Below, one piece after another: positions 11,397-22,899 of a stretch of DNA of 37,492 bases. Position 1 is the stretch's first letter. The number at the start of each line of letters is the position of its first letter. Origin of the DNA: Prochloraceae cyanobacterium (GTDB taxonomy: Bacteria; Cyanobacteriota; Cyanobacteriia; Cyanobacteriales; JASJDA01); NCBI GenBank assembly GCA_030065755.1, contig JASJDA010000036.1, forward strand, positions 1 to 37,492. Direction: 5' to 3'. Position numbers and translations under genes: made by a program. The notes beneath the pieces were generated by a model, which was not told the origin of the DNA, searched no databases, and saw nothing but the letters and a program-made list of their open reading frames with translations.

Positions 11397-11471
11397 ATTA
11401 AAGTCAGTGAAGAGGTCGCCCTCTCCACTGCTCTCCAAAACCGTGCTTGATAGTTTCCCATCACACGGCTC
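11397..11471 (-). mobile_element. Group II intron 3' end (domains V and VI), truncated
   Basis: On the minus strand 11471-11438 folds as a canonical 34-nt domain V. GAGCCGTG pairs with CACGGTTT, TGATGG pairs with CTATCA, the tetraloop is GAAA and the 3'-side bulge is the two bases AG. Domain VI follows with an 11-bp stem (CAGTGGAGAGG / CCTCTTCACTG), loop GCGA and an unpaired A at 11404, seven bases before a possible 3' splice site ending in AT at 11397. Only about 320 bases remain before hisF, too short for the rest of an intron, and no reverse transcriptase is present. Confidence 0.75.
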
Positions 11472-11576
11472 CTCAATGAAATAGCGTTTGTCATGCGCAC
11501 GTCAATCAAGGAACTTGTGAATAATATTATGTGTTATCCCTGGGATCAAAAGTCCCCTACCTCTATAGGTAGAACG

Positions 11577-14383: not shown

Positions 14384-14404
14384 TTGCCTATCTTTTTTCG
14401 AGGC

Positions 14405-15697
14405 GTGGAAATAATTGCCTATCTCTACAGCGATCCTCTGCTAGACTCTCTACCCAGTCCAGAAATTTGGGGTCAAGAAGTCGATCGCGTATATCAAGAC
14501 TTGGGAAAGCGACAGCAACTTTTGCAACTAATAGAAGATTGCCAAACTAAACCCCCCAATTATCTTTTAATTCGCCGTTTAGAGGAACTTGGAGATACTT
14601 TAGAAGAAGTCGGCGATCGCCTCACTCAATTAGAATCTTTGGGAGTAGAAATAGTAGCCACAGAACAAGATTACACTTCTTCTGAACTTAAAAAAGCAAA
14701 TTTAGCCAAAATACTGGAAGAAATTGCCAATAATCAGCGCTGCCGTCGTCTAAAACAAGGACACGCCCGCAATCGGCTAAAAACCCTCCCACCACCAGGT
14801 AAAGCTCCCTACGGATATCGTAGAGGGAAAGATAGATATATTATCGATCGCTCTACCGCCCCAGTAGTAAAAGATTTTTGCGATCGCTTTTTGCTATTTG
14901 GTTCTTTGCGAGGTGCGGTGCGCTACTTAGAAAAAAGGTACGGGAAAAAGATTTCTGTCTCCACAGGTCGTCGCTGGCTGACTAGCCCAGTTTATCGCGG
15001 TAACTTAATCTATCAAAACAGCGAGATTATTTCTAATACCCACGCAGCGATTATTTCTAGGGAAGAAGCAGCACAGATCGATCGCTTGTTGCGTCGCAAT
15101 AGTCGTTTACCCTCGCGCACTGCTAGCGCACCCCGATCGCTTGCTGGTTTAGTGGTTTGTCAGCAGTGTAACTCGCACATGACCGTTACCCGCGTTACCA
15201 CCAGAGACAAAAAACGAGAATATCTTTATTTACGCGCCCTAGATTGCCCTATAAGCCCTAAATGCGGTGCTATTAGCTACGATCGAGTCCTAGAAAAAAC
15301 TATCGAGAAAATTTGCCAAGATTTACCTGTTGCAGTAGCGCAGATGAACTTACCTAGTGCAGAGGGTATTAAGGGAATGTTGGGGGCTGAAATTGCTAAG
15401 AGAGAAGAGATTATAGCTAAATTGCCCACTTTACAACAGCAGGGGATTTTAGACGAAGAGACTGCCCAATTACGCAATTATAAACTACGCGCGGAAATCT
15501 CTTCCTACCAAATCAAATTAGCTGGTTTACCTCCAGTAAATTTACAAGAATTAGCGCAAACCGTTTCTATTGCTCAATTTTGGCAAGATTTATCGGAAGC
15601 TGAAAGGCGATTTTATTTTCGGGAATTTATTAAACAAGTAGAAATTGTTCGTCAACAAGAAAATTGCTGGAAGCTAGAAATAGTATTTATTTTTTAG
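14405..15697 (+). CDS. Serine-recombinase-family protein (XisF-like) with degenerate catalytic site
   Basis: About 430 residues arranged as a shortened N-terminal resolvase-like domain, a recombinase domain (PPPGKAPYGYRRG, then FGSLRGAVRYLEKRYGKKIS and SPVYRGNLIYQN) and a zinc ribbon (CQQC..CPISPKC). A C-terminal helical region follows, as in large serine recombinases such as XisF. The Ser of the active site may persist (AYLYSDP). The Arg of the usual R-V-S is Leu, and the usual LDRLGRS reads LEELGDT, so three expected arginines are gone. Translation can start at GTG 14405 or TTG 14384; neither has a clear ribosome-binding site. I favour 14405, which gives MEIIAYLYS. It may be a DNA-binding protein rather than an active recombinase. 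Confidence 0.85.
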   Translation: MEIIAYLYSDPLLDSLPSPEIWGQEVDRVYQDLGKRQQLLQLIEDCQTKPPNYLLIRRLEELGDTLEEVGDRLTQLESLGVEIVATEQDYTSSELKKANLAKILEEIANNQRCRRLKQGHARNRLKTLPPPGKAPYGYRRGKDRYIIDRSTAPVVKDFCDRFLLFGSLRGAVRYLEKRYGKKISVSTGRRWLTSPVYRGNLIYQNSEIISNTHAAIISREEAAQIDRLLRRNSRLPSRTASAPRSLAGLVVCQQCNSHMTVTRVTTRDKKREYLYLRALDCPISPKCGAISYDRVLEKTIEKICQDLPVAVAQMNLPSAEGIKGMLGAEIAKREEIIAKLPTLQQQGILDEETAQLRNYKLRAEISSYQIKLAGLPPVNLQELAQTVSIAQFWQDLSEAERRFYFREFIKQVEIVRQQENCWKLEIVFIF

Positions 15698-19104: not shown

Positions 19105-20280
19105 TTACTCTAACAGGTTCTCACCAGCTAAAATAGCGGTTTCATCTCCCCAAGCTTGAAATCCCGTATGCCCTACGGTACTCAATCCAATAGAGAGTAT
19201 GTTCCTAGCTGCGTTTTCATCTCTATCTAAGACGCAGCCACACTTGCATTGATGTGTTCGGGTACTGAGTGTCTTAGTTACTTTTGCTCCACACTCCGAA
19301 CAGTTGACCGATGTATATTGTGGTGGCACAGCAACGGTTATTTTGCCAAACTTATACCCAAAATACTCTATCCATACTCTAAATTGATACCACCCCGCGT
19401 CAGTTATTGACTTGGCCAGATTATGATTTTTGACCATGTTCGCTACTCTCAAGTCTTCATAGGCGACTACATCATTAGATGTGATTACGCACCGTGCCAA
19501 CTTTATGGCATGGTCTTTACGCTGCCTGCTTATCTTGAGGTGCTTGATGGCGTATCTTTTTCTAGCCTTATGGTAGTTGCTAGACTGAGGCTTTTTACCT
19601 AAAACATACTTCTTAGACTTACGACGATTGCATCGATTGAGAGCTTTTTCCCCTTTTCGATAAAATCTAGGGTTCTCAATTTGATTCCCCTTATCGTCAG
19701 TATAGAAGTGATTCAGTCCTACATCTAAGCCAATTTCCGAGTAGGATGGTTCTACTTTTTCTCTAGTGTCTACATCGACCAAAAACTGACAATAGTAGCC
19801 ATCAGCACGTCTAACTATCCTGACTCGCTTAATCTGTTTCTCCCTGTACCAGAGTAGATTGCGAGTACCTTTTAGCTTAACCTTGCCAATGGCTTTTTTG
19901 TCAGAAAAAGTGATGTATTTCCTATCATCCGATAACTTCCAGCCAGTAGTTTTGTATTCTACCGAACGAGAATGTCTGCGGAACTTAGGAAAACCTTTCT
20001 TACCAGGAATATTTTTCTTGCAGTTGTTGTAGAAACGAGATATGGCTGCCCAGGCTCTATCGGCACTAGATTGTCTCGCCATTGAGTTGAGTTGGGCAGC
20101 AAAGGAAAATTCAGCAGCCAGAACTTTGCAGTAAGCACTCAAGTCATATTTGCCGACTCCTTTATTGTCCATCCAATAGCGCAAAGCTTTATTACGGATA
20201 AACTGAGCTGTTCTGATTGCTTCATCTATTGCCAAACACTGTTTATGCTTGGCGTATATCTTCATTTCTAAAACTAGCAT
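19105..20280 (-). CDS. tnpB: TnpB, RNA-guided nuclease of IS200/IS605 type
   Basis: The 391-residue OrfB/TnpB looks intact. The RuvC residues are Asp in IGLDVGLNHF, Glu in VAYEDLRVANM and Asp in LDRDENAARNI. The zinc ribbon is CSEC..CKCGC. The N-terminal helix-rich region (IRTAQFIRNKALRYWMDN) and the conserved GKKGFPKFRRHSRSVEYKT are present. TnpB proteins are ancestors of Cas12 and cut DNA next to a short motif under guidance of an RNA made from the element's right end. The N-terminus (MLVLEMKIYAKHKQ) is normal. Nothing is truncated or frameshifted. Confidence 0.95.
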   Translation of the reverse strand: MLVLEMKIYAKHKQCLAIDEAIRTAQFIRNKALRYWMDNKGVGKYDLSAYCKVLAAEFSFAAQLNSMARQSSADRAWAAISRFYNNCKKNIPGKKGFPKFRRHSRSVEYKTTGWKLSDDRKYITFSDKKAIGKVKLKGTRNLLWYREKQIKRVRIVRRADGYYCQFLVDVDTREKVEPSYSEIGLDVGLNHFYTDDKGNQIENPRFYRKGEKALNRCNRRKSKKYVLGKKPQSSNYHKARKRYAIKHLKISRQRKDHAIKLARCVITSNDVVAYEDLRVANMVKNHNLAKSITDAGWYQFRVWIEYFGYKFGKITVAVPPQYTSVNCSECGAKVTKTLSTRTHQCKCGCVLDRDENAARNILSIGLSTVGHTGFQAWGDETAILAGENLLE

Positions 20281-21620: not shown

Positions 21621-21835
21621 AATTTTATCTCTCTTTTATATAAAAAACTGAACCGTATAGTTTCATAATACTCAAAAAAAATAGGGATTTTCTGGAGCTT
21701 TAAAAAAAGTTAACGTGGCGCGCTTATTTTTTAGTCCGAAGCGCGATCGAACCTGCTCTTTCCTAGGCAAAAATATCTAATGATATCTACTATTAAGCTA
21801 TAAATAACATTAGGTTTTTCTTAAAATAATTGTAC
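21621..21835. other. AT-rich region upstream of the FAD monooxygenase
   Basis: No gene is seen. It holds the likely promoter for the minus-strand monooxygenase and, at its right edge, the -10 box of the candidate RNA on the plus strand. Confidence 0.45.
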
Positions 21836-21841
21836 TATAAT
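21836..21841 (+). promoter_or_regulatory. TATAAT -10 box of the candidate RNA
   Basis: A perfect TATAAT lies 7 bases before ATTCCCT, the first arm of the closing stem. No good -35 is seen 16-18 bases upstream, where the sequence is T-rich. The position fits a start near 21848. Confidence 0.5.
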
Positions 21842-21847
21842 AATTGT

Positions 21848-22128
21848 ATTCCCTTAGGATTTACCAGAGGATAACCCTAAGCCACGTGGTGCTTGCCGTA
21901 AGCAACACGGACTATTCAACCGAAGAAAGCCCCAGAGGGAATTCTTTTATCAGAGATGGTAACAAGATAGGTTTAAAACCTCCTTCAAAGTGAGTAACGC
22001 TTGAATAGTAAGTTTAGCTCAGTCACCGATGGAGCGAAACTATTAATAATACTGCTATTAGTAGTTATTGATAGGTTTTTAGTAGGTGCCAATAAAATTA
22101 ACCCCCCGCATAAATAAGGGGGTGTTTT
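21848..22128 (+). ncRNA. Candidate structured RNA, class unknown
   Basis: This gene-free stretch is rich in consistent helices. ATTCCCT (21848-21854) pairs with AGGGAAT. TTAGG pairs with CCTAA. CGTG-TGCTT pairs with AAGCA-CACG around GCCGT. ACTATTCAA (21911-21919) pairs with TTGAATAGT (22001-22009), crossing the first helix as a possible pseudoknot. GTTT-GCTC pairs with GAGC-AAAC, and a long AT stem-loop lies at about 22039-22074. A TATAAT box precedes it and a terminator ends it. No open reading frame is credible. A 6S-type RNA was considered, but I cannot confirm it. A shorter RNA ending near 21948 (TTCTTTTAT after the first helix) is also possible. Confidence 0.5.
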
Positions 22129-22130
22129 AA
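22102..22130. terminator. Bidirectional terminator between the candidate RNA and vipp1
   Basis: ACCCCC pairs with GGGGGT around an AT loop (GCATAAATAA). TGTTTTAATTT follows on the plus strand and TTAATTTTATT on the minus strand. It lies just past the vipp1 stop codon, so it can end both transcripts. Confidence 0.75.
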
Positions 22131-22131
22131 T

Positions 22132-22899
22132 TTAGAGATTTTTGAATTGATTTTCAAGATCTTCTAATTCTGCATCAACTGCTGAATCTGAGCCAGATTT
22201 TTCTTTTTTTGCTGATGGTAATTCTCCTGCGGGTTTAGAAGTACCAGCTAGCTGAGCCTTCATTGCTGCTAATTCATCTTCTACCCCACTACCCCCTTCT
22301 AACTGAGCAAACTGTTGTTCCAAACTAGAACCTTGAAGCTCTGATGCTGACTGAGATTCAGCTTCTAGTGCTAAGACCTTTTCTTCCATGCGCTCGAAGG
22401 CTGCCATAGCGCCACTAGTTCCTATATTATTCAAGGTACTTTGTAGCTCTTTGTTGGCTTTAGCAGCTTTAGCTCTTGCTTGGAGTATATTTTTCTTGCT
22501 CTTAGCTTCAGCAATTTTACCCTCTAAGTTTTTGAGGGTACCTTTAAGGGTTTGCACTTGATTACTTTGTGCGTCGAGCTGTAATTTTAAACTATTAGCA
22601 GTGTCGGCATAATTTTTTTTGCGTACTAAAGCTTGACGAGCGAGGTTTTCATCTCCTTTGCTTAGAGCTAATTGCGCTCGCTGTTGCCATTTTTTGGTTT
22701 CTGCTGAGCTATTGTTGTATTGCTGCTCGGTTCGTTTTTGTTCTGCAATTGCCCTGGCTACCGCTTGACGCAATTGTACCAGTTGCTCTTGCATGTCTAT
22801 TAATGCTTGCTCTAGTATTTTTTCTGGGTCTTCAGCTTTGCTAATTAGATCGTTAGTATTAGCTCTAATAACTCTGCCTAGACGATCGAATAATCCCAT
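22132..22899 (-). CDS. vipp1: Vipp1/IM30, PspA-family membrane-remodelling protein
   Basis: Vipp1 forms large ESCRT-III-like rings and rods on the inner face of plasma and thylakoid membranes. It is needed for thylakoid biogenesis and membrane stress repair. The 255 residues start with the amphipathic helix MGLFDRLGRVIRANTNDLIS and continue as the long PspA coiled coil, with A-L-rich heptads to about 185. The extra C-terminal helix typical of Vipp1 ends in AELEDLENQFKNL. That extension separates Vipp1 from plain PspA. No psp operon partner is present, which is normal for cyanobacteria. Confidence 0.95.
   Translation of the reverse strand: MGLFDRLGRVIRANTNDLISKAEDPEKILEQALIDMQEQLVQLRQAVARAIAEQKRTEQQYNNSSAETKKWQQRAQLALSKGDENLARQALVRKKNYADTANSLKLQLDAQSNQVQTLKGTLKNLEGKIAEAKSKKNILQARAKAAKANKELQSTLNNIGTSGAMAAFERMEEKVLALEAESQSASELQGSSLEQQFAQLEGGSGVEDELAAMKAQLAGTSKPAGELPSAKKEKSGSDSAVDAELEDLENQFKNL

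What the first reader, a model, noticed from the sequence alone, without database searches (positions are those of the whole stretch)
21836..22130. Candidate structured RNA with promoter, possible pseudoknot and terminator
Seen: a perfect TATAAT 7 bases before ATTCCCT; helix ATTCCCT/AGGGAAT; a crossing 9-bp perfect pair ACTATTCAA/TTGAATAGT; several further stem-loops; and a GC-rich bidirectional terminator, with no credible reading frame. Inference: an independently transcribed RNA of up to about 280 nt (or about 100 nt if it ends at the TTCTTTTAT after the first helix). I cannot place it in a known class. 6S was considered, but the closing stem spans only about 92 nt.
Basis: partly seen in the sequence, partly recalled or inferred. 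Interest (0 to 1): 0.72.

Follow-up and report, generated by a model that had tools for sequence, protein, structure and literature searches.

The report
TnpB-less transposon carrying only guide RNA
The 'unknown structured RNA' is the guide-RNA end of a tiny (about 335-base) jumping element in a cyanobacterium that has lost the protein genes of its parent transposon but kept the RNA that would guide the TnpB protein to DNA; similar RNA-only elements recur, and one has demonstrably moved, in related genomes.

Summary
In detail: the helices, the TATAAT and the GC-rich inverted repeat are present and no reading frame is credible. The RNA matches nothing in Rfam. BLASTN, a motif scan and covariance models place it as the omega-RNA (reRNA, the transposon-end guide RNA) of a cyanobacterial IS607-type TnpB family. 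A model trained without the window finds 21910-22088 at 80 bits (E=3e-18) and stops exactly at the transposon right end (...AGGTG|). On 63 distinct homologues 89% of helix cells pair (65% in shuffles) and 16 of 19 pairs change on both sides. In relatives this RNA overlaps the 3' end of tnpB. Here the gene is gone, and a left end lies at 21753, making a mini-element of about 335 bp whose flank (22089 on) is the would-be guide. At least 11 other RNA-only elements of 310-351 bp occur in the order. One is present in two genomes and absent from three sisters, which shows insertion at a CTG site with the TG dinucleotide repeated. The partner TnpB clade lacks the RuvC-III aspartate, so it is predicted to bind rather than cut. 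Transcription and function are untested. This is a new variant of a known kind.

The parts
21753..22088 (+). mini-element (IS607-type, no protein gene): left end + omega-RNA/right end; inferred core dinucleotide TG at 21754-21755 and 22087-22088
   Evidence: Left-end match to Crocosphaera elements starts exactly at 21753 and is the best place in the whole window for 3 of 5 left ends; right end fixed by abrupt loss of conservation in 17+ relatives; CTG/TG insertion chemistry taken from the empty-site comparison of a sister mini-element
21753..21816 (+). left end (CTGCTCTTTCCTAGGCAAAAATATCTAATGATATCT...); CTG 21753-21755 = inferred target/TAM bases
   Evidence: shuffles reaching the score: 4/1000 (L068), 8/1000 (L067), 75/1000 (L054), weaker for L055 and L056
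21836..21841 (+). TATAAT, possible -10 box; no good -35
   Evidence: sequence; 4% of shuffles have it at this spacing; scanner reported no sigma-70 site here
21848..21942 (+). helix A ATTCCCT 21848-21854 / AGGGAAT 21936-21942, crosses helix D
   Evidence: 8 bp here with neighbours; only 3-6 bp at matching places in some relatives: inconclusive
21853..21881 (+). helix B hairpin CTTAGG/CCTAAG with conserved loop ACCAGAGGAT (21863-21872)
   Evidence: loop conserved 226-358 nt before the right end in relatives; stem in the same register with different sequences in all
21885..21909 (+). helix C hairpin CGTGgTGCTT-gccgt-AAGCAaCACG
   Evidence: sequence; relatives have longer hairpins at this place (L096, L100), no sequence similarity
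   Evidence: same register in 22 of 23 relatives with different sequences (UUUCAAUG/CAUUGAAA, UUUGAUUG/CAAUCAAA, UUCGAUUG/CAAUCGAA, CUACUUGCUUG/CAAGUAAGUAG, UGUUUGAA/UUCAAACA); 8 of 8 modelled pairs change on both sides
22011..22041 (+). helix F hairpin, GCTC 22017-22020 / GAGC 22032-22035 (extended by AGTTT/AAACT), loop AGTCACCGATG
   Evidence: loop CACC kept throughout the family, stem covaries
22040..22074 (+). helix G CTATTAATAAT 22040-22050 / GTTATTGATAG 22064-22074
22024..22088 (+). pseudoknot candidate: loop CACC 22024-22027 x guide-flanking GGTG 22085-22088
   Evidence: both strands near-invariant in the family, so covariation cannot test it; same place as the pseudoknot described for ISDra2/IS607 reRNAs (PMC10711439)
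22089..22104 (+). flanking DNA that would be the ~16-nt guide (CCAATAAAATTAACCC)
   Evidence: starts right after the right end; guide length from PMC8612924; no other exact site in the genome, one with 1 mismatch, counts no higher than reversed control
22102..22122 (.). GC-rich hairpin outside the element; terminator of vipp1/pspA (22132-22899, minus); weak as + strand terminator

Best explanation
Window 21753-22088 is a non-autonomous (protein-less) mini-element of an IS607-type transposon family of this cyanobacterial order. It consists of a left end, a short leader with a possible promoter, and a complete omega-RNA (reRNA) scaffold that doubles as the right end. It most likely works in trans. 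A serine-recombinase TnpA from another copy moves it into CTG sites at the TG dinucleotide. The RNA reads out into the flank, so the first ~16 nt after the end become the guide, and the scaffold loads onto a TnpB-family protein encoded elsewhere, which then recognises the empty donor site (CTG + guide). Shown here: family membership, structure, element ends, absence of tnpB, recurrence of RNA-only elements, and one insertion event in a sister element. Inferred: transcription, TnpB binding, guide use, mobilisation in trans, and whether this copy is still active.
For: BLASTN homologues at 73-81% identity end at the same base, with unrelated flanks. L068 is a full element: serine recombinase + 566-aa TnpB-like protein + this RNA at its right end. 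The protein carries TnpB-family signatures (TIGR01766) and a Cas12f/TnpB-like fold. The leave-one-out model hits at 80.1 bits, E=3e-18, next best in window 7.1 bits. Covariation is strong against both controls. The left end matches. At least 11 further elements have left end, omega-RNA and right end but no TnpB similarity within 2.3 kb. Filled versus empty sites in one genus show insertion CCTTTAA-C-TG[...]TG-TGTC. The same genome holds another RNA-only element (C369), one omega-RNA joined to a tnpB (C325) and several tnpA relatives.
Against: No transcript data. The closest tnpB in this genome (C325) has a frameshift near its N-terminus. The window copy is unique in its genome, and no empty site was found for it. 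Left-end similarity is modest for some comparisons. The guide run includes part of the vipp1 terminator hairpin, which could hinder its use.
Confidence: 0.87

Rival explanations
1. Passive relic: the element arose by internal deletion of an IS607/TnpB transposon; the RNA survives only because it overlaps the right end needed for transposition, and it no longer guides anything.
For: Deletion intermediates exist (L054 and L067); the genome's nearest tnpB is frameshifted; some copies in sister genomes have partly lost helix D.
Against: In the window the coding sequence has gone (stops in all frames) while helices B, D, F and G stay paired in new sequence and hairpin C has been rebuilt; RNA-only elements recur in several lineages.
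Confidence: 0.4
2. Domesticated guide: the RNA serves a nuclease-dead TnpB-like protein as an RNA-guided DNA binder or repressor, as in TldR systems.
For: All 26 TnpB-like loci of the clade lack the RuvC-III Asp (YGLNSGTAAA against YGLASDEAAA in outgroups); TldRs are known nuclease-dead TnpBs, and trans-supplied guide RNAs have been suggested for them (PMC13418256).
Against: The guide has no convincing second target in the genome; elements are still mobile and scattered rather than fixed beside host genes.
Confidence: 0.15
3. Free-standing regulatory small RNA of the vipp1 region (3' UTR, antisense or 6S-like) unrelated to transposons.
For: It lies between vipp1 and a monooxygenase gene and has a TATAAT.
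Against: Not found downstream of vipp1 in 29 relatives; no Rfam match; homologues end at transposon right ends.
Confidence: 0.02

Closest known systems
TnpB omega-RNA / reRNA of IS200/IS605 and IS607 elements (ISDra2, PMC8612924; ISXfa1, PMC10711439)
   Same: RNA from the transposon right end, 3' run-on into flank as guide, guide-flanking bases complementary to a stem-loop apex, overlaps the 3' end of tnpB in the parents
   Different: here tnpB is absent; larger scaffold (about 240 nt) with helices B and D; family not in Rfam; TnpB clade lacks the RuvC-III Asp; inferred target/TAM is CTG
RAGATH-18 reRNA of IS607 TnpB (PMC11061315)
   Same: IS607 association, structured reRNA separate from coding sequence; that paper places 64% of RAGATH-18 RNAs next to IS607 TnpBs
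   Different: different RNA family (RAGATH-18 not hit by Rfam scan); there tnpB normally accompanies it
Non-autonomous IS derivatives (MITEs, PATEs; from general knowledge)
   Same: short protein-less elements moved in trans
   Different: these keep a whole guide-RNA scaffold under structural constraint
TldR-gRNA systems (PMC13418256)
   Same: nuclease-dead TnpB relatives with guide RNAs
   Different: no adjacent tldR or host gene, no identified target, still transposon-like

Membership tests
TnpB-associated omega-RNA (reRNA) | homologues lie at the 3'/right end of tnpB-bearing transposons | tested here: met
TnpB-associated omega-RNA (reRNA) | scaffold ends at the element boundary and flank follows as guide | tested here: met
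   identity stops at AGGTG| (window 22088); boundary shown by filled/empty sites of a sister element
TnpB-associated omega-RNA (reRNA) | conserved secondary structure | tested here: met
TnpB-associated omega-RNA (reRNA) | pseudoknot between guide-flanking bases and apical loop | tested here: inconclusive
   CACC x GGUG present but near-invariant
TnpB-associated omega-RNA (reRNA) | RNA binds TnpB and guides it | not testable with these tools
   needs RIP-seq or biochemistry
IS607 family element | serine-recombinase TnpA in autonomous members | tested here: met
   TnpA ORF in L068; similar ORFs in L103 and L105
IS607 family element | insertion at a dinucleotide without longer target duplication | tested here: met
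   shown for the sister mini-element L205 in G306/G315 against G298/G251/G327; not testable for the window copy
IS607 family element | window copy has a matching left end | tested here: met
   21753, best place in window for 3 of 5 left ends; 4-75 per 1000 shuffles for those
RNA-guided nuclease TnpB (protein partner) | RuvC D-E-D triad | tested here: not met
   D and E of motifs I and II kept, RuvC-III Asp absent in all 26 clade loci
6S and other Rfam families | covariance-model match | tested here: not met

The most novel reading that the evidence does not exclude
Cyanobacteria harbour mobile elements whose only product is a guide RNA. Scattered copies with different guides supply in trans a clade of cleavage-dead TnpB proteins, giving RNA-guided DNA binding (donor-site marking, silencing or homing help) rather than cutting.
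Probability: 0.2. Interest if true: 0.85.

Novelty: new variant of a known kind. Interest (0 to 1): 0.62.

Why it matters
It turns an unplaced RNA into a member of a new omega-RNA family with a defined structure, ends and insertion site. It shows that guide-RNA-only mini-elements recur and move within one bacterial order, and it ties them to a TnpB clade that has lost a catalytic residue. That makes two open questions testable: what transposons gain from a TnpB that cannot cut, and whether guide RNAs are shared between elements in trans, a step on the way from transposon guides to CRISPR-like arrays and RNA-guided regulators.

Tried and rejected
Rfam at gathering and loose thresholds: only chance matches. 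tRNA/tmRNA scan: nothing at the locus. Synteny with vipp1: RNA absent at that place in 29 relatives. Plasmid and phage BLASTN: chance AT-rich matches. Viral-contig pattern scan: none. The IS200/IS605 tnpB at 19105-20280 in the window was considered as the source; it belongs to another TnpB family (NF040570) and lies 1.5 kb away behind another gene. The idea that the partner protein is a sequence relative of Cas12k was not supported: sequence and profile searches of PDB found no Cas12, and the fold search puts Cas12f first (model only pLDDT 64). Model R1 has no structure, and R3 had helices F and G entered out of register; R3 therefore tests sequence plus helix D. A second empty-site test (L202) was not clean: other genomes have ~72 nt between the flanks. 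A scan of 290 other genomes of the class found no member.

Full report
Observation. The + strand folds better than shuffles (z about -2.8) and the - strand less so (z = -1.3). On their own these are modest: 14% of shuffles contain some perfect 9-bp helix and 44% of shuffles of the AT-rich leader contain TATAAT, 4% at the right spacing. Rfam has no match.

Placing it. BLASTN of 391 genomes of the order found true homologues of the 3' part: 81% over 99 nt in G277, and 73-77% over about 77 nt in Crocosphaera genomes, some at contig ends. A motif scan of 85,000 genomes, GTCACCGATG...AGGTTTTTAGNAGGTG, gave 17 stretches, all Crocosphaera or Xenococcaceae. Identity stops abruptly after AGGTG (window 22088) and flanks are unrelated: a transposon right end. 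L068 is a complete element with a serine-recombinase TnpA and a 566-aa TnpB-like protein whose ORF ends 46 nt before that end. The protein matches TIGR01766 and, below cut-off, NF040570; its predicted fold is Cas12f-like (best E 5e-9; modest model, pLDDT 64).

Structure by comparison. With tnpB-linked relatives from several families, an alignment of the region shows a constant loop ACCAGAGGAT, a constant loop AGTCACCGATG-like motif and the end AGGTG. Helices B, F and G behave likewise, helix C is structurally present but variable, and helix A is only partly supported. On 63 distinct matches, 89.2% of cells pair against 65.2% in shuffles; 16 of 19 pairs have changes on both sides; covariation 0.377 against 0.125, and at most 0.085 when slid. 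That alignment was fitted to the model, so it leans towards the structure; one search used an unfitted alignment. A model built without the window finds it at 80.1 bits, E=3e-18, ending at 22088. The guide-flanking GGTG is complementary to the CACC of loop F, the place of the known reRNA pseudoknot (PMC10711439), but both are near-invariant, so covariation cannot test it.

A protein-less element. In relatives the RNA overlaps tnpB coding sequence; here the sequence has stops in every frame and no tnpB of this family is near. The left ends of the Crocosphaera elements begin CTGYT...CTAGG and match window 21753 exactly at their start; this is the best place in the whole window for three of five left ends, and 4 to 75 of 1000 shuffles score as high for those. 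So the element is 21753-22088. A scan with the covariance model found members in 36 of 391 genomes of the order and none in 290 other genomes of the class. Of 60 matches inspected, 15 had no TnpB similarity within 2.3 kb upstream, and 11 of these have left end, loop B and right end, 310-351 bp long. One of them (C369) is in the window's own genome, which also has a tnpB-linked copy (C325, frameshifted) and tnpA relatives.

Mobility. One RNA-only element, L205, is present at the same place in G306 and G315 and absent in G298, G251 and G327. Empty: CCTTTAACTG|TGTC. Filled: CCTTTAA C TG [element] TG TGTC. Insertion is at a TG dinucleotide with no longer duplication, as expected of IS607 (PMC10711439), and the preceding C, kept at nearly all left ends, suggests CTG as target and TAM. 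By analogy the window's guide starts at 22089 (CCAATAAAATTAACCC). It has no exact second site in the genome.

The protein partner. All 26 loci of the clade have YGLNS(G/A)xAAA where outgroup relatives have YGLASDEAAA: the RuvC-III aspartate is gone, while the Asp of motif I and Glu of motif II remain. I predict RNA-guided binding without cleavage, but this is inference; other residues might substitute.

What is shown and what is not. Shown: membership, structure, ends, absence of tnpB, recurrence, one past insertion of a sister element. Inferred: promoter use, RNA production, TnpB loading in trans, present activity. A passive relic is the main rival; the maintained helices in a non-coding context argue for selection on the RNA at least until recently. 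The GC-rich hairpin belongs to vipp1, passes the terminator scan only on its strand, and lies beyond the element.

Novelty. Omega-RNAs are known, and trans supply of guide RNAs has been suggested (PMC13418256). In the RAGATH-18 study 64% of the RNAs lay beside an IS607 tnpB (PMC11061315). I found no description of this RNA family, of omega-RNA-only IS607 mini-elements in cyanobacteria, or of this catalytically incomplete clade in the papers I could search; subscription literature was not searchable. I rate it a new variant of a known kind.

Noticed in passing
TnpB-like proteins in L096-L124 and L068: A clade of 26 IS607-type TnpB-like loci in cyanobacteria lacks the RuvC-III aspartate although many copies are intact and multi-copy; related outgroup proteins keep it.
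   Followed up: partly
G306:C687 (L203, L116): An RNA-only mini-element sits about 100 bp upstream of a tnpB element of the same family, as if one inserted next to or into the other.
   Followed up: no
window 19105-20280 (-): A canonical IS200/IS605-type tnpB (391 aa, RNA-guided TnpB family) of a different family from the one that owns this RNA.
   Followed up: partly
window 11397-11473 (-): Rfam match to group II intron RNA (56.9 bits) downstream of an mnmA-like gene; intron extent and any encoded protein were not examined.
   Followed up: no
window 14384-15697 (+): 437-aa ORF that looks by eye like a large serine recombinase next to a glyoxalase-like gene; possible excision element.
   Followed up: no
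G000:C325:4110-5694: tnpB-linked copy in the same genome with a frameshift about 80 codons in; sequencing error or pseudogene not resolved.
   Followed up: partly
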